A DNA stretch of 64,000 nucleotides from the NCBI RefSeq assembly GCF_031127875.1, contig NZ_JARXIA010000018.1, positions 1-64,000 of the forward strand. The letters are read 5' to 3'. A program made the position numbers and the translations under genes. Shown in pieces: positions 6,963-26,027 of the stretch. The first letter of the stretch is position 1. Each line of letters opens with the position of its first letter. Below the pieces are notes generated by a model. That model did no database searches. It saw nothing but the letters and a program-made list of their open reading frames with translations, and was not told the origin of the DNA. The DNA comes from Pelagicoccus sp. SDUM812005. GTDB lineage: Bacteria; Verrucomicrobiota; Verrucomicrobiia; Opitutales; Opitutaceae.

Positions 6963-8849
6963 TTAGTCGAAGGCGATGGCCTGCAGCAGGGGGGCGATTT
7001 CGTCTACTCCGGCGGGCTTCACGAGGTGGTGGTCGAAGCCTGCGTCGATCGCTTTTTGGCGGTCGGCGTCGCGACCCCAACCGGTGAGGGCGATGAGGGT
7101 GGTTTTCTTTCCCCAGGGTTGCTGGCGGATGGCTGCGGCGGTCTCGTAGCCGTTGAGGAGCGGCATGCCGATATCCATGACGATGGCGTGGGGCAGGAAG
7201 GTTGCGGCGAGCTCGAGGGTTTCTTCGCCGTTGCCGGCGACTTGGGTTTCGATGCCCAGCAGCTTGATGCTCAGGGCCAGGAGCTTCGCGGTGGCGGGGT
7301 TGTCGTCGGCGATGAGAACGCGGCCTTGCTTAGAGAGGCTGGGCGCGGTCTTGGTTGCGGAAAGGGTGGTTTCGCTGGGGGCTTGGGGGGCGATGGGGAG
7401 CCGTACGGAGAGGGTCGTCCCCTTGCCGAGGCCGTCGCTTTGGATTTGCACTTCGCCGTCGTGCAGCTCGACCAGCTTCTTGACGAGGTGGAGTCCGACT
7501 CCGAGGCCTTGGTGCCCGTCGACCTGGGCGTTGCCGATTTGGGTGAACAGTTCGAAGATCTTCGGTTGGTCCTCGGGGGCGATGCCGATGCCGTCGTCGG
7601 CGACTTGGATGTTGGCGAAGGCGCCGTCGGTCTCGACCGAAACGGTTATTCTGCCGCGGGGCGGGGTGTACTTGGCGGCGTTGTTTAGGAGGTTGGAGAA
7701 GATTTGGGTGAGGCGGTGGGGGTCGCCGTCGAGCGGTATGCTTTGGGAGGAGGTTTCGAAGACGAACTCGTGCTGGGTGGACTGGAAGAGGGGCTGCGTC
7801 GCTACGAGGGCGCAGTTGATGGAGTGGATGAGGTTGGTACGTTCCTTTCGGAGGGTGATCTTTCCGGTGGTGATGCGGGAGACGTCGAGCAGGTCGTTGA
7901 TGAGGCGGGTGAGCTGGTTGGATTGCTGCTCGAGGGTTTGGCTGAGCTCGGCGATGAATTCGGGGTTGTGGGCCTGGGACTTGAGGAGTGTGATGCCGGA
8001 GCAGATGGGGGCGAGTGGGTTGCGCAGCTCGTGGGCGAGGGTGGCGAGGAACTGGTCCTTGCGTCGGTCGGCTTCGCGGAGTTCGGCGTTGGCTCGTTCC
8101 ACTTCCTTGAGGAGCTGGTGCTCGCGGCGGAGCATGCTGAGCTCGCTTTGCAGGACTTGGGCAACCTGGGCGGAATCGTTTTCCGGATGGCTCAGGATGC
8201 AGGTGGCGAGCTCGCTGTTGACATCGATGAGTTCGGAGATGTCGGCTTCGAATTCGAGCTCGGGGTGGGTTTGGGTCCAGTAGTGGGCGGATCGGACGAA
8301 AGTGAGGAAGGCGAGCAGGTATTCGAGGTCCGCGGGGGAGAAGTGGGCTTGGAGAGCGGCGAGGCTCTCGACTGCTTCCTGGTTTTGCAGGAAGACGTGG
8401 GTGGCGCAGGCGAAGAGGCTTTTTTCGTGGTCCGATTCGGGGAGCGGCGGCGTTTGGTTGGACCACTTCAGGTCAGCCAGCCGCTGGTAGTGCTCCTGCA
8501 TGGCTTCGCCGCGAGGGAGGGCGCGGGAGATAAGGGTGACGACTTCGTCGACGGTTTGGGTTTTGGATTCTGGGTCGCCGGAGGGGTGTCCGAGGCCGAG
8601 CAGGAAGCCGACGTGCCGAGCGATGCAGTAGCGGGCTTGGCAGAATTTCGAGACGTAGACGAAAAGCCTCTCTTTGAAGAGCGAGGGGAGGGGGTTGTCG
8701 AGGTAGCCGAGCTGGGCGAAGCCCCAGAGCCGCTCGATGATTTCCGGAGCTTTGCGGGAGAGCTGGAAGAAGTTGGGGAGCAGGCCGAAGCGGTTTTGGA
8801 TATCTTGGTGCAAGGCGCTGGGTTCCTCGTCATTCGGTTGGTTTTTCAT
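6963..8849 (-). CDS. Cytosolic hybrid histidine kinase with AhpD-like N-terminal domain
   Basis: The protein has 628 residues and no membrane segment. Residues about 10-190 look like an AhpD/carboxymuconolactone-decarboxylase helical domain. The diagnostic stretch is ERLFVYVSKFCQARYCIARH, with C70, C75 and H79; the usual CxxC pair is spaced CxxxxC here. A coiled linker (about 215-260) leads to HisKA (LATLAHELRNPLAPI, His near 270). HATPase_c follows (NNAAKYTPP, DDGIGIAPEDQ, GLGVGLHLVKKL). A C-terminal receiver closes the protein (VLIADDNPA, phosphoacceptor Asp in IVMDIGMP near 557, Lys in HLVKPAG). The architecture suggests kinase control by a redox or peroxide signal sensed by the AhpD fold, which is inference. 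No output regulator is adjacent, and the receiver may signal through the HPt encoded at 34.3 kb. Confidence 0.88.
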   Translation of the reverse strand: MKNQPNDEEPSALHQDIQNRFGLLPNFFQLSRKAPEIIERLWGFAQLGYLDNPLPSLFKERLFVYVSKFCQARYCIARHVGFLLGLGHPSGDPESKTQTVDEVVTLISRALPRGEAMQEHYQRLADLKWSNQTPPLPESDHEKSLFACATHVFLQNQEAVESLAALQAHFSPADLEYLLAFLTFVRSAHYWTQTHPELEFEADISELIDVNSELATCILSHPENDSAQVAQVLQSELSMLRREHQLLKEVERANAELREADRRKDQFLATLAHELRNPLAPICSGITLLKSQAHNPEFIAELSQTLEQQSNQLTRLINDLLDVSRITTGKITLRKERTNLIHSINCALVATQPLFQSTQHEFVFETSSQSIPLDGDPHRLTQIFSNLLNNAAKYTPPRGRITVSVETDGAFANIQVADDGIGIAPEDQPKIFELFTQIGNAQVDGHQGLGVGLHLVKKLVELHDGEVQIQSDGLGKGTTLSVRLPIAPQAPSETTLSATKTAPSLSKQGRVLIADDNPATAKLLALSIKLLGIETQVAGNGEETLELAATFLPHAIVMDIGMPLLNGYETAAAIRQQPWGKKTTLIALTGWGRDADRQKAIDAGFDHHLVKPAGVDEIAPLLQAIAFD

Positions 8850-20799: not shown

Positions 20800-22629
20800 A
20801 TGAGCAACACGCCCAATCAATTCATTCCTGCCGACGCTCCTTTTGCTCCGGAGCAAGCAGCTGCGCTGAACGCTGTTCTCGGCTCGGCCAATGCCCAGCA
20901 AGCCACATGGCTCAAGGGCTTCTTCGCAGGTCTCGTAGCCGGCGAGCAAGGTTTCGGCCATGGCGCGGGCGCTCCCGCAGCCGCTGCCGGCGGTTCTGCT
21001 CCCTTGACCATCCTCTTCGGGTCCGAGTCGGGCAATGCCGAGGGGCTCGCCGATCGCGTGAAGGACTCCGCTTCCGCGGAAGGCTTCAAGTGCAAGGTCG
21101 TCGACATGGCGGACGCCAAGCTGGCCGACCTGGCCAAGGCGGAGAACCTGCTCGTGCTCGTGAGCACCTGGGGCGAAGGCGAGCCGCCGTCGCGGGCTAG
21201 CGATTTCTACGACGCGATCATGGCCGAAAAGGCGGTCAAGCTCGATGGCGTCAACTTTTCGGTGCTCGGCCTGGGCGACAGCTCCTACACGCAGTTCAAC
21301 CAGATGGCCAAGGAGTTCGACAAGCGCCTCGAAGACCTCGGCGGTACCCGCATCTACGATCGCGTGGAGTGCGACGTCGATTTCGAAGGTCCCTACGTGG
21401 GCTGGGCCAACGGCGCCATCGCCAAGCTCAAGGAGATCGCCAAGCCGGCAGCCGCGGCCGCTCCGGTGGTCGGTTTCGGTTCCGGTCCCGCTATCCTGAC
21501 TCCGGTCGCTCCGGCCTACAGCAAGGCGAATCCCTTCCAGGCGGAGATGCTGAAGAGCATCAACCTCAACGGAACCGGTTCCGCTAAGGAAACCATCCAC
21601 GCGGAAATTTCCCTCGAAGGTTCCGGCCTCACCTACGAGCCCGGCGACGCGCTTGGCGTCATTCCCGAAAACGCTCCCGATCTCGTGGAAGCCTTCCTCG
21701 AAGCCGCCAAGCTCGACGGCCGCGAGAACGTCTCCTTCAAGGACGAGCTCTCGGTGCCATTCGGCGATTTGCTGCGCAAGCAGCTCGACCTGCGTACCAT
21801 CAATTCGGTGATCCTCAAGAAGTACGCCAAGGCCTGCGACCACAAGGAGCTGCTCAAGATGTCGGAAGATCGTGAGAAGGTGAAGGACTGGGCTTGGGGC
21901 CGCGATATCGTGGACCTCGTCAAGGAGTATCCTTCCTCGCTGCGTGCCGGCGATTGGGTGTCCTTGCTCCGTCCGCTTTCGCCACGTCTCTACTCGATCG
22001 CTTCTGCGATTTCGGCTCACCCGAACGAGGTTCACCTCACGGTAGGAGCGGTTCGCTACGAAGCCTTCGGCCGCCAGAAGAAGGGCGTTTGCTCGACTTT
22101 CATCGCCGACGCTTGGAAGGAAGGCACCAAGGCAGGCGTCTATTTCCACAGCAACAAGAACTTCAAGCTGCCCGCCGACCCTGCGACTCCCATTATCATG
22201 GTCGGTCCCGGCACCGGTATCGCTCCGTTCCGCGCTTTCGTGGAAGAGCGGGCTGCAACGGGCGCGAAGGGCGAGAACTGGCTCTTCTTCGGAGACCAGC
22301 GCTACACCTACGACTTCCTCTACCAGACCGAATGGCAGGACTACCTCAAGAAGGGAGTGCTCACCAAGCTCGATCTGGCTTTCAGCCGTGACCAACCCGA
22401 GAAGATCTACGTCCAGGATCGCATGCGCGAAAATGGGGCGGAACTCTGGGAGTGGCTCGACAAGGGCGCCTACTTCTACGTTTGCGGCGATGCGACCCGC
22501 ATGGCCAAGGACGTCAACCAAGCCCTCATCGACATCGTGCAGGAGCACGGCAAGAAGAGCGAGGAAGACGCCATCGCCTACGTGAAGCAGATGACCAAGG
22601 AGCGTCGCTACGGACGCGACGTCTACTAG
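20800..22629 (+). CDS. cysJ: CysJ-like diflavin reductase (sulfite reductase [NADPH] flavoprotein component)
   Basis: This 609-residue diflavin enzyme starts at ATG 20800; MSNTPNQFIPADAPFAPEQA resembles the CysJ N-terminus. A short helical lead (QQATWLKGFFAGLVAGEQ) and an Ala-rich linker precede the flavodoxin domain. That domain has TILFGSESGNAEGLADRV for FMN and LVLVSTWGEGEPPSRASDFY. The FAD domain has RLYSIASAISAHPNEVHLTV and GVCSTFIADAW. The NADPH domain has MVGPGTGIAPFRAFVEERAA, FFGDQRYTYDFLYQTEW and YVCGDATRMAKDVNQAL, ending in RRYGRDVY as in CysJ/CPR proteins. It moves electrons from NADPH to a partner, normally the CysI hemoprotein in sulfate assimilation. No cysI is adjacent, so the electron acceptor is unproven. 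Confidence 0.9.
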   Translation: MSNTPNQFIPADAPFAPEQAAALNAVLGSANAQQATWLKGFFAGLVAGEQGFGHGAGAPAAAAGGSAPLTILFGSESGNAEGLADRVKDSASAEGFKCKVVDMADAKLADLAKAENLLVLVSTWGEGEPPSRASDFYDAIMAEKAVKLDGVNFSVLGLGDSSYTQFNQMAKEFDKRLEDLGGTRIYDRVECDVDFEGPYVGWANGAIAKLKEIAKPAAAAAPVVGFGSGPAILTPVAPAYSKANPFQAEMLKSINLNGTGSAKETIHAEISLEGSGLTYEPGDALGVIPENAPDLVEAFLEAAKLDGRENVSFKDELSVPFGDLLRKQLDLRTINSVILKKYAKACDHKELLKMSEDREKVKDWAWGRDIVDLVKEYPSSLRAGDWVSLLRPLSPRLYSIASAISAHPNEVHLTVGAVRYEAFGRQKKGVCSTFIADAWKEGTKAGVYFHSNKNFKLPADPATPIIMVGPGTGIAPFRAFVEERAATGAKGENWLFFGDQRYTYDFLYQTEWQDYLKKGVLTKLDLAFSRDQPEKIYVQDRMRENGAELWEWLDKGAYFYVCGDATRMAKDVNQALIDIVQEHGKKSEEDAIAYVKQMTKERRYGRDVY

Positions 22630-22673
22630 TCGGCTTCAGCTCGAATCCAGAAAACGGATACTATTTCCTCAGA

Positions 22674-22704
22674 GCCCGTCGCCCGAAATGGCGGCGGGCT
22701 TTTT
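22674..22704 (+). terminator. Rho-independent terminator after cysJ-like gene
   Basis: A 10-bp stem (GCCCGTCGCC with GGCGGCGGGC), six-base loop CGAAAT, then five T residues, 45 bp after the stop codon. Confidence 0.88.
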
Positions 22705-22901
22705 CGTGGGCGGCCGACGAGTTGGGGTGAGCTTGTCTGCCTGAGGTTTGGAGACGTATCCAAAGGTGAGTGCGTTTAATGTAGAGCGTGGGTGGGCGCT
22801 AAATGCCCATGGAGCAGCTTTATGCTGCTTTCTATTTTTGTAAGTCGCTGATGGTCAATGTCTGGAAGCGCGATGGCGCTGGCTGTGCGAATAGGTGGGC
22901 C

Positions 22902-25355
22902 ATGAAACCTTCATCTATTATGAAAATTAAGACGTACCGCATCGGTCGGGCTCTGGTCGCGGGGCTTGGCATCGTTTTCAGTTCAGCCGCTTTGCAGGCG
23001 GCCGGTTTGCTGACTCCAGTCTCGCAGGGAGACCAGCTGCTCGACTTGGAGAGCCACCATGTGCGGGTGGTGATCAACAATGGCTTTGCCCGTACCGAGG
23101 TGGAGCAGGTTTTTTCCAATCCGAACGCACATGAGCTGGAGGCCGTTTATACGGCTCCGGTTCCCAAGGCGGGCGCCTTGTCGGAGCTGACCATCTATGC
23201 GGGAGAGCGGGTCCTGCAGGGCGAGGTCGTGGCGAAGGCGGAAGCGGAACGCATTTACCAGGAAGAAAAGGAGCAAGGCAACGAAGTGGGGAAGGCGGAC
23301 AAAAATTCGTATCAGAATTTTGAATTCACCGTTTATCCGGTGCCGGCAAAGGGGAGCGTGCGCATGACCTATGTCTATTACGAGCCTTTGAAGATCGATA
23401 CTGGGGTGGGGCGCTACCACTATCCGCTCGAGGAAGGGGGAACCGACGATGGGGCAAATTCGTTTTGGACGCAGAACGACGTGGTGAGTTCTCAGTTCAG
23501 CGTGGAGGTTAGGCTGAAGTCGAACTATCCGTTGGCTCGCACGCGTATTCCGAACTTCGGCGGATCGGCCCAAGCTCAGGAAGATGGAAGTCTGCTGTAC
23601 CGATACGAGAGCGAAGGAGCGATCCTGGATCAGGACTTTGTTTTCTACTACATGCTGGAGGAGAACTTGCCGGGTCGCTTGGAGATGCTGACGTATCGAG
23701 AAAACGAGGACAAGGCTGGATCGTTCATGATGGTGATGACGCCTGGAGTGGACTTAAAGCCCTTGGCAGGTGGGGCTGACTACGTTTTCGCGATCGACGT
23801 TTCCGGCAGCATGCAAGGGAAGCTGCACACTTTGGTTTCGGGCGTAAAGAAGGCGATCGGCCAGCTGAAGCCCGAAGACCGGTTTCGCATCGTTGGCTTT
23901 AACGATCGGGCTTTTGAAGTGAATCAAGGTTGGGTGAACGCGTCGGAGCAAGGCGTACGCGACAGTTTGAGTCGCTTGGACCAATTGGTTTCCAACGGGG
24001 GAACCAACGTGTACGCGGGGGTGAAGTTGGCGATGGAGAAGCTCGATGCGGATCGAGTGGCGACTCTGATCCTAGTGACGGACGGAGTCACTAATCGCGG
24101 GATCGTGGATCCGAAGGAGTTTTATAAGATCATGCACAAGCAAGACCTTCGCTTCTATGGTTTCCTTTTGGGGAACAGCAGCAATTGGCCTTTGATGGAA
24201 GTGATGTGCGAAGCGAGTGGCGGAAGCTACCGGGCGGTTTCGAATAGCGATGACATCATTGGAGAAGTATTGATCGCCAAGAACAAGATTGCCTTCGAGA
24301 GCATGAGGCAGGCGAGCTTGAGTATTAAGGGAGTGAATACGTTTGACGTAAGCGATTTTAAGATCGGGAAAATCCACTTCGGCGACCAGCTGGTGCTCTT
24401 TGGCCGCTACGAAAAAGGGGGCAAGGCGACGGTGACGCTTACTGCTCGCGTCAATGGAGAGGATCGCAGCTACCGTACGGAGGTCGTTTTTCCGGAGCGC
24501 GATGTTGCTCACCCCGAGCTGGAGCGGATGTGGGCCATGGACCAGGTGCGGAAGATCGAAGTGAACCAGCTCGCTGGATTCGTCGAAGAAGGGGAGGCGA
24601 AGGTCGCGATCCGGGATATCGGTGTCGCCTACCAGATCGTGACCGATGAGACGTCGATGATTGCCTTGGACGACGCCGGCTTCGCTCGCCATGGAGTGGA
24701 GCGTCGCAACCAGGAGCGGGTGGCTCGCGAGTTGCAGGCTCGCGTGGCCAACCCAGCGTCGAGCGGGGCTCAGCGAGTCGATGCCCAGCAGCCGATGTAT
24801 CAACAGCGTTCCCATTCGACGGGCGGTGGCGCGGGGGCGATCGAGCCTTGGTTCGTTCTGCTCGTAGCTGCGGGGGGTGGCGCCCTTGCGTGGCGAAAGT
24901 GGCGACGCTCGGGGGCTTCCTTGAGCGCCTTGGCCATAGGCGTGATCGCTGTGGGTGCGGTCGCGGGGTCGAAGCTCGAAGCTTCCGATGGCGAGCGGCC
25001 GGGTTGGACGGAGCGTTCAGGAAAGCTTGCTGCAGGAAAGAGCTCGATCGATCACTCGATCGCCAGCTTTTGGGACGTCAGCGAGGAGGAAGCTGCGGTT
25101 CCCGTTCGATCCGGCTCACCTGTAGTCGACACGGATGCGGATCGGGGCGATAGGCAATGTGTCGCGACCGTGAATTTACGAAATGGATACGCATCTGAAT
25201 CGGATTCGCATCAGGTTAAGCAGCGGAGGGATCGAGGGAGTCGTCGCGGTCATTTCGGGCTTAATCTATTTAATGCGATTCCTGTTTTCGATTTCGTGTG
25301 GGGAGACGACAACGAAAGGGAGTCGGATGCCTACGAAGGAAAGGTGAGGCGCTAG
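22902..25355 (+). CDS. VIT and vWA domain surface protein, probable rhombosortase substrate
   Basis: This protein of about 817 residues starts at ATG 22902, which has AGGTGG just upstream; ATG 22920 is an alternative. A signal sequence follows (IGRALVAGLGIVFSSAALQA). The VIT domain spans about 50-170 (HHVRVVINNGFARTEVEQVF, SVRMTYVYYEPL). The vWA domain starts near 293, with the MIDAS motif DVSGS at 299-303 and LVTDGVTNRG near 395. Near residue 640 a Gly-rich cassette (STGGGAGAIEPW) enters a hydrophobic helix ending in RKWRR. That is the layout of GlyGly-CTERM sorting signals, but here it is followed by a second hydrophobic stretch and a ~125-residue hydrophilic tail. The next gene encodes a rhombosortase-like protease. 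VIT-vWA proteins in marine proteobacteria are targets of dedicated sortases, so a parallel system is likely (inference). Confidence 0.88.
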   Translation: MKPSSIMKIKTYRIGRALVAGLGIVFSSAALQAAGLLTPVSQGDQLLDLESHHVRVVINNGFARTEVEQVFSNPNAHELEAVYTAPVPKAGALSELTIYAGERVLQGEVVAKAEAERIYQEEKEQGNEVGKADKNSYQNFEFTVYPVPAKGSVRMTYVYYEPLKIDTGVGRYHYPLEEGGTDDGANSFWTQNDVVSSQFSVEVRLKSNYPLARTRIPNFGGSAQAQEDGSLLYRYESEGAILDQDFVFYYMLEENLPGRLEMLTYRENEDKAGSFMMVMTPGVDLKPLAGGADYVFAIDVSGSMQGKLHTLVSGVKKAIGQLKPEDRFRIVGFNDRAFEVNQGWVNASEQGVRDSLSRLDQLVSNGGTNVYAGVKLAMEKLDADRVATLILVTDGVTNRGIVDPKEFYKIMHKQDLRFYGFLLGNSSNWPLMEVMCEASGGSYRAVSNSDDIIGEVLIAKNKIAFESMRQASLSIKGVNTFDVSDFKIGKIHFGDQLVLFGRYEKGGKATVTLTARVNGEDRSYRTEVVFPERDVAHPELERMWAMDQVRKIEVNQLAGFVEEGEAKVAIRDIGVAYQIVTDETSMIALDDAGFARHGVERRNQERVARELQARVANPASSGAQRVDAQQPMYQQRSHSTGGGAGAIEPWFVLLVAAGGGALAWRKWRRSGASLSALAIGVIAVGAVAGSKLEASDGERPGWTERSGKLAAGKSSIDHSIASFWDVSEEEAAVPVRSGSPVVDTDADRGDRQCVATVNLRNGYASESDSHQVKQRRDRGSRRGHFGLNLFNAIPVFDFVWGDDNERESDAYEGKVRR

Positions 25356-25369
25356 AATTGGTTTGGGAG

Positions 25370-25400
25370 GGGCCGCGAGGCGAGCAGCGCTTCGCGGCCC
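25370..25400 (+). promoter_or_regulatory. Intercistronic hairpin between the VIT/vWA gene and the rhombosortase gene
   Basis: A perfect 9-bp stem (GGGCCGCGA with TCGCGGCCC) with a 13-base loop lies in the 60-bp gap and is followed by only three T residues. It may partly terminate transcription or stabilise the upstream mRNA, lowering protease expression relative to its substrate. Confidence 0.6.
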
Positions 25401-25415
25401 TTTGAGGATAAGGAT

Positions 25416-26027
25416 ATGACGTCTAAAATTGGCAGGATTCCGTGGATTAGCCTTTCGGTCGGCGTATTGGCCTTGTTGATACATGCTGGAGGACCGGCGT
25501 GCTTCGAGCTTTTCGTTTGGAGAGCGGACTGGCCCGCAAGCGGTGCTTTTTGGCGGATTGCGAGCGGGCATTTGGTCCATGTGGACGGTGGCCATTTGCT
25601 TTGGGACCTGTCGGCGTTTCTGCTGTTGGGGTGCTACCTGGAGCGACGGGACCGGAGGGGGCTGGTTTGGACGCTGGCTTTAAGCGTTTTGTTGGCGGAA
25701 GCCTTTTTAAGGGCGTCGGGGCGTTTCGAGCTCTACTGCGGTCTGTCGGGAGTCGCGATGGGTTTGTTCGTGGCGGTGGGTTGGCGCTTCGTTGGCCGGG
25801 GGCGCCTTTCCAGCGATCCTTGGCTGGTCGGGATGGGGGCGGCTGCTTTGGCGGCGGCGGTGGGGAAGCTTGCTTGGGAGCTGCTTGCGTCGGAGGCCGT
25901 GTTTGTGGGGACGCTTGCGGATGGCTATCGCGTGGCGGTGGAGGCCCATGCGGCAGGTTTGCTGGCGGCGACGCTGAGCGGGTGGCGCTGGCGTTGGGTT
26001 GGGGCGCCGCGGTCGGCGGTCGGCTAG
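25416..26027 (+). CDS. rrtA: Rhombosortase-like intramembrane serine protease
   Basis: This 203-residue polytopic membrane protein has about six hydrophobic helices. Rhomboid landmarks are visible: SGHLVHVDGGHLLWDL (residues 50-65) corresponds to the H-x-x-x-x-H-x-x-x-N loop, with Asp where rhomboids have Asn. YCGLSG holds the candidate nucleophile S111. VEAHAAGLLAA holds the candidate catalytic H178, followed by the small-residue helix. The length and the GLSG/HAAG pattern fit rhombosortases, which cleave GlyGly-CTERM anchors, better than general GlpG rhomboids. A start at ATG 25416 is supported by GAGG eight bases upstream. The preceding gene encodes a candidate substrate. I am fairly sure of the rhomboid fold and somewhat less sure of the rhombosortase subfamily. 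Confidence 0.8.
   Translation: MTSKIGRIPWISLSVGVLALLIHAGGPACFELFVWRADWPASGAFWRIASGHLVHVDGGHLLWDLSAFLLLGCYLERRDRRGLVWTLALSVLLAEAFLRASGRFELYCGLSGVAMGLFVAVGWRFVGRGRLSSDPWLVGMGAAALAAAVGKLAWELLASEAVFVGTLADGYRVAVEAHAAGLLAATLSGWRWRWVGAPRSAVG

What the first reader, a model, noticed from the sequence alone, without database searches (positions are those of the whole stretch)
22902..26027. A VIT/vWA surface protein paired with its own rhombosortase-like protease
The vWA protein carries a Gly-rich stretch, a hydrophobic helix and RKWRR near residue 640, the GlyGly-CTERM layout. The next gene, 60 bp on, encodes a six-helix rhomboid-like protease with GLSG (S111) and H178. In marine proteobacteria VIT-vWA proteins are paired with dedicated sortases and LPxTG-like signals, so this would be the same idea built from a different protease. 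The signal is not at the C-terminus: a second hydrophobic stretch and ~125 residues follow, which could be a released peptide or a cytosolic tail. The pair is my best candidate for an undescribed system.
Basis: partly seen in the sequence, partly recalled or inferred. Interest (0 to 1): 0.85.

Follow-up and report, generated by a model that had tools for sequence, protein, structure and literature searches.

The report
Fused surface protein with dedicated rhombosortase
A marine Pelagicoccus bacterium encodes a surface-type protein beside the membrane protease predicted to cut it, and the same chain carries a second small secreted protein that relatives encode as a separate gene, so one chain appears built to be cut into two exported proteins.

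Summary
In detail: a VIT/vWA protein with an internal Gly-rich/TM/RKWRR signal is followed 60 bp on by a rhomboid protease that passes the rhombosortase HMM (92.5 bits, cut-off 84). The kind is known: Haft & Varghese (2011) reported vault/VIT-type proteins with GlyGly-CTERM and, separately, adjacency when a genome has one target. Here the pairing is general: 23 of 23 assessable loci in the window's order, 18 of 18 assessable among 19 further phylum loci examined. New is what follows the signal. The 'tail' is a third cassette component: in seven Verrucomicrobiota MAGs a separate small secreted-type gene between the VIT/vWA and rhombosortase genes; in seven genomes (Pelagicoccus including 'DG1235', and one sister genus) fused in frame behind the signal, its signal peptide sharing the basic cluster. 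The product looks like a polyprotein: Sec signal, VIT-vWA, GlyGly-type signal, signal peptide, secreted peptide. Cleavage by rhombosortase and signal peptidase is inferred, not shown. This likely supplies the target of DG1235, listed in 2011 as 'rhombosortase but no GlyGly-CTERM'. A sigma-54-like motif precedes 22 of 32 VIT/vWA genes examined. New variant of a known kind.

The parts
22874..22888 (+). sigma-54-like -24/-12 promoter motif TGGCGCTGGCTGTGC, upstream of the VIT/vWA gene
   Evidence: GGCRY-N7-GCD within 100 nt upstream in 22 of 32 loci, mononucleotide shuffles mean 0.25, max 2; 7 of the 14 loci that I had not looked at when the pattern was fixed
   Evidence: sequence; start aligned with relatives; signal peptide judged by eye
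23046..23378 (+). VIT domain
   Evidence: PF08487, 89.5 bits
23784..24233 (+). vWA domain with a DVSGSM MIDAS-type motif (MIDAS assignment recalled)
   Evidence: PF13768 52.9 bits; D, S, S, T and D invariant in 14 rows of A5; model resembles inter-alpha-inhibitor heavy chain 1, 6fpy
24822..24908 (+). internal GlyGly-CTERM-like sorting signal: GGGAGAIE + TM1 (24846-24893) + RKWRR (24894-24908)
   Evidence: profile A7: E 4.3e-17 here, next best in the genome 0.25; this protein is one of the profile's rows
24918..24983 (+). TM2 = internal signal peptide of the fused third component; predicted signal peptidase I site LEA|S
   Evidence: Ala at the predicted -1 in 7 of 7 fused genomes by eye; aligned with N-terminal signal peptides of stand-alone homologues
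24984..25355 (+). fused third cassette component (mature small secreted protein and stop); motifs SSIDxSIxxFW (within 25041-25094) and GHFGLNLFNAIPVFDFVWG (25248-25304)
   Evidence: no Pfam, NCBIfam, PHROG or PDB-sequence match
25361..25409 (+). strong RNA hairpin between the two genes
   Evidence: -34.4 kcal/mol, z -6.1
25416..26027 (+). rhombosortase; Ser111 at 25746-25748, His178 at 25947-25949
   Evidence: TIGR03902 92.5 bits over cut-off 84; catalytic columns

Best explanation
The two genes are the Pelagicoccus form of a dedicated rhombosortase cassette. The first ORF is a secreted polyprotein of two former genes. An N-terminal Sec signal peptide exports a VIT/vWA adhesin-like domain. A GlyGly-CTERM-like signal (Gly-rich motif, TM1, RKWRR) stops transfer. 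TM2, the old signal peptide of a small secreted partner, then turns the chain back out and exports that partner. The adjacent rhombosortase would cut at or in TM1, so that the VIT/vWA protein can be joined to an envelope anchor and reach the surface. Signal peptidase I would cut after TM2 (LEA|S) and free the partner, leaving a small membrane hairpin. Shown: architecture, conservation, dedicated pairing, and the split form in relatives. Inferred: both cleavages, anchoring, topology and the partner's role.
For: Rhombosortase HMM passed by P0002 and by 7 of 7 further copies tested (G001-G006 and G015), 87.4-99.4 bits against cut-off 84. Order survey of 223 genomes: VIT/vWA in 24; rhombosortase downstream on the same strand in 23 of 23 assessable, one cut by a contig end. 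Phylum survey of 387 genomes: 44 with a match; of these I examined the 19 newly fetched loci: 18 with a rhomboid/rhombosortase-profile hit next to the gene, 1 at a contig end. One strong sort signal per genome in G000-G006 and G015 (8 of 8); none in G007, which lacks this vWA type, rhombosortase and tail. Tail: fused in 7 genomes (G000, G002-G006, G015); absent in eight short-form proteins that stop right after the basic cluster. The tail profile finds stand-alone ORFs in 6 other order genomes; 10 of 10 loci of the named scan carry vWA, tail and rhombosortase, 3 fused and 7 split. In G144 the stand-alone ORF starts 3 nt after the vWA stop, in the same frame. The tail evolves as protein among four genomes: differences per codon position 0.35/0.28/0.62; TM2 changes fast, as signal peptides do, 0.50/0.45/0.68, on only 120 codon pairs. 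Tree: the fused rows fall in one group of SH-aLRT 100 whose one other member (G001) lacks the tail; the split rows form one group (97). Mechanism by homology: V. cholerae VesB is cut by RssP and joined to a glycerophosphoethanolamine-containing moiety (PMC6219818, abstract); cleavage lies within the TM segment (PMC11389362, abstract, sections 6-7).
Against: No cleavage data. GlyGly-CTERM signals described so far have 0-5 residues after them (PMC3237569, section 17); this one is internal. TIGR03501 does not report the signal. The His that replaces GlpG Tyr205 in 'virtually all' rhombosortases is absent in 26 of 26 aligned copies here, not all of them VIT-paired. 10 of the 23 paired rhombosortases of the order survey are under the TIGR03902 cut-off. 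Counter-cases: G004 has vWA and rhombosortase 11 kb apart; G067 has tail and rhombosortase but no vWA hit; G001 lacks the tail. In-frame TTG codons exist in TM2 of all seven fused genes, so internal starts cannot be excluded, though a start there would lack the basic n-region. Tail models are low confidence. Signal peptides were judged without a predictor.
Confidence: 0.72

Rival explanations
1. The fusion is processed by rhombosortase only. TM2 is a permanent anchor, so the partner stays as an inner-membrane-tethered periplasmic peptide.
For: TM2 has the hydropathy of a membrane helix; the AxA-like context is judged by eye without a signal-peptide predictor.
Against: TM2 aligns with cleavable-looking signal peptides of stand-alone homologues and keeps Ala at the predicted -1 in 7 of 7 by eye; it changes fast, like a signal peptide.
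Confidence: 0.17
2. The fused form is no longer a substrate: the vWA-tail protein is a two-TM inner-membrane protein and the neighbouring rhombosortase is a relic or acts elsewhere.
For: The signal is no longer C-terminal; the curated signal model does not report it; the S+4 His is missing.
Against: The signal is kept in all 7 fused proteins and is the only strong one in each of those genomes; the rhombosortase keeps Ser and His and lies beside the gene in 6 of 7 fused genomes. Rhomboid substrates with 40 or more residues after the TM are known (PMC3237569, section 17).
Confidence: 0.08
3. The last ~125 residues are a cytosolic tail or a by-product peptide without function.
For: Much of the tail is predicted with low confidence.
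Against: Homologues are separate secreted-type genes in the same cassette; conserved motifs and codon constraint; two membrane crossings would place it outside.
Confidence: 0.03

Closest known systems
GlyGly-CTERM / rhombosortase (RssP) system, TIGR03501 / TIGR03902 (Haft & Varghese 2011; Gadwal et al. 2018)
   Same: Rhombosortase HMM passed; Gly-rich motif, TM and basic cluster; Sec-type signal; single target beside the protease; vault/VIT-type proteins already among the targets.
   Different: Signal is internal and a GGGGA(I/L) variant not reported by TIGR03501; a second signal peptide and secreted protein follow; S+4 His absent; third cassette component.
Proteobacterial dedicated sortase system (TIGR03784 sortase with the VIT/vWA target TIGR03788)
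   Same: Target is a VIT/vWA protein with its own sorting enzyme; P0001 matches TIGR03788 at 170 bits.
   Different: Enzyme is a rhomboid protease, not a sortase; P0001 is far under the TIGR03788 cut-off (551.65).
VIT/vWA with PEP-CTERM and exosortase (Verrucomicrobium spinosum in PMC3237569, section 12)
   Same: Same protein type with a membrane sorting enzyme; one such adjacent pair lies elsewhere in this same genome (L056).
   Different: Different enzyme class and signal.
Viral polyprotein junctions such as flavivirus prM-E (recalled; not searched)
   Same: Stop-transfer TM followed by a TM acting as signal peptide of the next secreted protein, cut by signal peptidase.
   Different: No homology claimed; bacterial, with a rhomboid protease for the upstream cut.

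Membership tests
Rhombosortase (TIGR03902) | score over the curated cut-off of 84 bits | tested here: met
   92.5 bits; 7 of 7 other tested copies 87.4-99.4. In the order survey 13 of 23 paired copies are over the cut-off, 10 are at 55.5-83.2
Rhombosortase (TIGR03902) | catalytic Ser in GLSG and His in AHxxG | tested here: met
   S111 and H178 in P0002; Ser in 26 of 26 aligned rows; His in 23 of 26, the 3 others have a gap there
Rhombosortase (TIGR03902) | WRxxS/T motif in loop L1 | tested here: met
   WRIAS in P0002; variants such as WKVVT, WPLFT and WQLLS in some other rows
Rhombosortase (TIGR03902) | His four residues after the catalytic Ser (SGMLH), reported for virtually all rhombosortases | tested here: not met
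   Met in P0002; His in 0 of 26 aligned rows, while six more distant phylum loci show GLSG..H. Reported as typical, not absolute; filed as rhombosortase on HMM score and context
Rhombosortase (TIGR03902) | cleavage of GlyGly-CTERM proteins | not testable with these tools
   needs experiment
GlyGly-CTERM protein (TIGR03501) | match to TIGR03501 | tested here: not met
   not reported for P0001, the DG1235 protein or five relatives; short model, weak matches may be filtered
GlyGly-CTERM protein (TIGR03501) | Gly-rich motif + TM + basic cluster | tested here: met
GlyGly-CTERM protein (TIGR03501) | located at the extreme C-terminus (0-5 residues after) | tested here: not met
   148 residues follow the basic cluster in the window; tail-less relatives end close to it
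GlyGly-CTERM protein (TIGR03501) | co-occurs with a rhombosortase | tested here: met
Marine sortase target (TIGR03788) | score over the curated cut-off 551.65 | tested here: not met
   170 bits

The most novel reading that the evidence does not exclude
A bacterial polyprotein whose sorting signal and the next protein's signal peptide stand back to back around one shared basic cluster. Rhombosortase and signal peptidase would split one chain into a surface-anchored VIT/vWA adhesin and its secreted partner in 1:1 ratio, under a sigma-54-type promoter; the partner founds a new protein family found so far only in rhombosortase cassettes.
Probability: 0.5. Interest if true: 0.75.

Novelty: new variant of a known kind. 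Interest (0 to 1): 0.62.

Why it matters
It likely supplies the target for an exception left open in 2011 (DG1235: rhombosortase without GlyGly-CTERM), suggests that the signal need not be at the end of the gene product, adds a third component to the cassette, and gives a one-target, one-enzyme test system in a marine bacterium. It also puts two VIT/vWA proteins with two different sorting enzymes in one genome.

Tried and rejected
The scan of genome contigs with P0002 alone found nothing. Rfam on 22500-23100 gave two matches far below their gathering scores. Pfam, NCBIfam, PHROGs and PDB sequence searches with tail sequences gave no family. A tail structure prediction gave pLDDT 58.6, pTM 0.19, too weak for a fold search. 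Considered and rejected: cytosolic tail (stand-alone homologues look exported); assembly or frameshift artefact (seven genomes fused without stops). Internal translation start of the tail is disfavoured but not excluded: no ATG in the basic loop of the seven, but in-frame TTG codons in TM2. The stops counted inside four fused-type matches lie upstream of the fused frame: the stop-to-stop frames of those genomes run through vWA and tail. A terminator role of the hairpin at 25361-25409 is undecided: it has no T run, and the terminator scan did not list it. Paper searches: rhombosortase (21 papers), GlyGly-CTERM (20), VIT domain + sortase (0), VIT domain + exosortase (0), Pelagicoccus + rhomboid (0), dedicated-sortase terms (0), vault/vWA/bacteria (9, 7 listed), internal signal peptide/polyprotein terms (34, 20 listed, many viral). 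I saw listings only, except PMC3237569 (abstract, passages, sections 9, 12, 14, 15, 17), PMC11389362 (abstract, sections 6, 7), PMC5300114 (passages), PMC6219818 and PMC13393428 (abstracts). None of what I saw shows this fusion.
Full report
What is there. The first ORF (22803-25355; likely start 22920) holds a Sec-type signal, a VIT domain and a vWA domain. Then come GGGAGAIE, a hydrophobic stretch, RKWRR, a second hydrophobic stretch and 128 further residues. The model of the chain from 22902 (mean pLDDT 73.9) matches inter-alpha-inhibitor heavy chain 1 best in the PDB and shows two helices at the junction; the tail is low confidence. The residues that I take for the MIDAS (recalled) are invariant in 14 aligned proteins. 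The second ORF (25416-26027) passes TIGR03902 with 92.5 bits and scores under 18 bits with two GlpG models. A profile of its relatives matches solved GlpG structures.

Where it lies. Genome G000 is in the same genus as G002, G003 and G006. Contigs of the same lengths are named Pelagicoccus sp. SDUM812002, P. mobilis and Verrucomicrobiae bacterium DG1235.

Pairing. Among 57 genomes (own and relatives), 15 hold this VIT/vWA type (one, G017, by a partial match; the G032 fragment is left out) and 14 of them have the rhombosortase close downstream; in G004 an 11 kb block separates them. In 223 genomes of the order, 24 have the VIT/vWA gene; 23 of 23 assessable have the rhombosortase downstream on the same strand, at most about 1.2 kb away, and G032 is cut by a contig end. 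Of these 23 rhombosortases 13 pass the curated cut-off and 10 score 55.5-83.2 bits. In 387 genomes of the phylum, 44 have a match at E <= 1e-60. I examined the 19 newly fetched loci: 18 have a rhomboid/rhombosortase-profile hit next to the gene, in two of them without a GLS string, and one ends at a contig edge; the weaker matches without a fetched locus were not examined. That profile does not by itself separate rhombosortases from other rhomboids. G067 is an exception, with tail and rhombosortase but no VIT/vWA hit.

One enzyme, one target. A profile of the signal (A7, built from 19 such proteins) finds one strong place in each of G000-G006 and G015 (E 4e-17 to 3e-13). The next best is 0.25 in G000 and 0.011 in the others (G005). 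G007 has none and lacks the rest. G011, with two rhombosortases, has a few further candidates. TIGR03501 did not report these proteins.

The tail is a third component. Proteins of G001, G009, G011, G012, G017, G026, G035 and G044 end soon after the basic cluster; those of G000, G002-G006 and G015 continue with a second stretch and a conserved tail. A tail profile against 223 order genomes hit six others, all as separate frames of 138-242 codons with signal-peptide- or lipoprotein-like starts by eye. A scan of the genome contigs with one peptide pattern matched 20 stretches, 10 of them confirmed: 10 of 10 carry VIT/vWA, tail and rhombosortase; 3 are fused (two Pelagicoccus, DG1235) and 7 are split in the order VIT/vWA, tail, rhombosortase (in two the VIT/vWA gene is cut by the contig end, in one a further gene lies between VIT/vWA and tail). 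The phylum sample of 387 gave the tail only in G000 plus one marginal hit with stops inside (ten candidates scored per genome at most), so the tail seems narrow while the pair is broad. In G144 the tail ORF begins 3 nt after the VIT/vWA stop in the same frame, so loss of one stop would fuse them. On the VIT/vWA tree (quick search, SH-aLRT) the split forms are one group (97) and the fused forms lie in one group (100) that includes the tail-less G001. G063 and G160, also tail-less, fall near them, so one origin of the tail with later losses fits but is not forced.

How it works. Positive residues follow TM1 and precede TM2, so by the positive-inside rule (recalled) the chain goes out-in-out. TM2 aligns with the signal peptides of the stand-alone homologues and keeps Ala at the predicted cut in 7 of 7 by eye. 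Codon positions among four genomes show protein-level constraint on the tail and fast change in TM2. For rhombosortase chemistry I rely on V. cholerae: cutting exposes a C-terminus that is joined to a glycerophosphoethanolamine-containing moiety (PMC6219818, abstract only), the cut lies in the TM segment (PMC11389362, abstract and sections 6-7), and the signal suffices for membrane association while a second signal is needed for outer-membrane passage (PMC13393428, abstract only). This genome has secretin-type genes, the best at 327 bits, under the GspD cut-off of 351, so a type II route is possible but not shown.

Regulation. A GGCRY-N7-GCD motif with sigma-54 spacing (consensus recalled) lies 29-96 nt before the assumed start in 22 of 32 loci (33 given, one not parsed); mononucleotide shuffles give 0.25 on average, 2 at most. 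The pattern was shaped on eight aligned loci and on 11 more seen; of the 14 loci not looked at before, 7 have it. In the window as a whole a looser pattern of this kind is no rarer or commoner than chance. A strong hairpin separates the two genes.

Known and new. Haft & Varghese 2011 (PMC3237569; abstract, passages, sections 9, 12, 14, 15, 17 read) already show vault/VIT-type proteins with GlyGly-CTERM, LPXTG or PEP-CTERM ends, adjacency of single targets, no TM between signal peptide and signal, and DG1235 as a rhombosortase genome without a recognised target. The DG1235 locus found here has a rhombosortase (99.4 bits) beside a fused VIT/vWA-tail protein. New here, as far as the searches show: the internal position of the signal, the fusion, the third component, the phylum-wide extent of the VIT/vWA pairing, and the sigma-54-like motif.

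Noticed in passing
L056 (G000:C118:132577-134244 and downstream): A second VIT/vWA protein of the same genome ends in TPEPEMWALMGLVLVAVSWILVRRGC (PEP-CTERM, 16.3 bits, below the Pfam cut-off 20.7) and is followed directly by an exosortase (PF09721 72.6 bits; nearest XrtQ, 175.8 bits, below its cut-off 270). By eye, similar pairs lie in G002, G004, G005, G007 and G015.
   Followed up: partly
L073:3400-14400 (G004): An 11 kb block of small genes (RelE-, GNAT-, VOC-like by eye) with direct repeats of 82-90% identity sits between the fused vWA gene and its rhombosortase, perhaps a gene-cassette array.
   Followed up: partly
L068 (G067) 7194-8836: Stand-alone tail and rhombosortase remain where no VIT/vWA gene is found; by eye a piece of the lipoprotein-like gene of G112 precedes them.
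   Followed up: partly
L161 and L172 (G011): A genome with two rhombosortases over the cut-off has further long frames (2079-3170 codons) with weaker GGG-type signals, E 3e-4 to 0.03.
   Followed up: no
L192-L197: Six distant phylum members pair VIT/vWA with a rhomboid protease that has the classical His (GLSG..H); five of them show a GxGPVGxxF-type signal at the end of the VIT/vWA frame.
   Followed up: no
25361-25409: Very stable hairpin (z -6.1) between the polyprotein and rhombosortase genes; it might lower expression of the protease against its target.
   Followed up: partly
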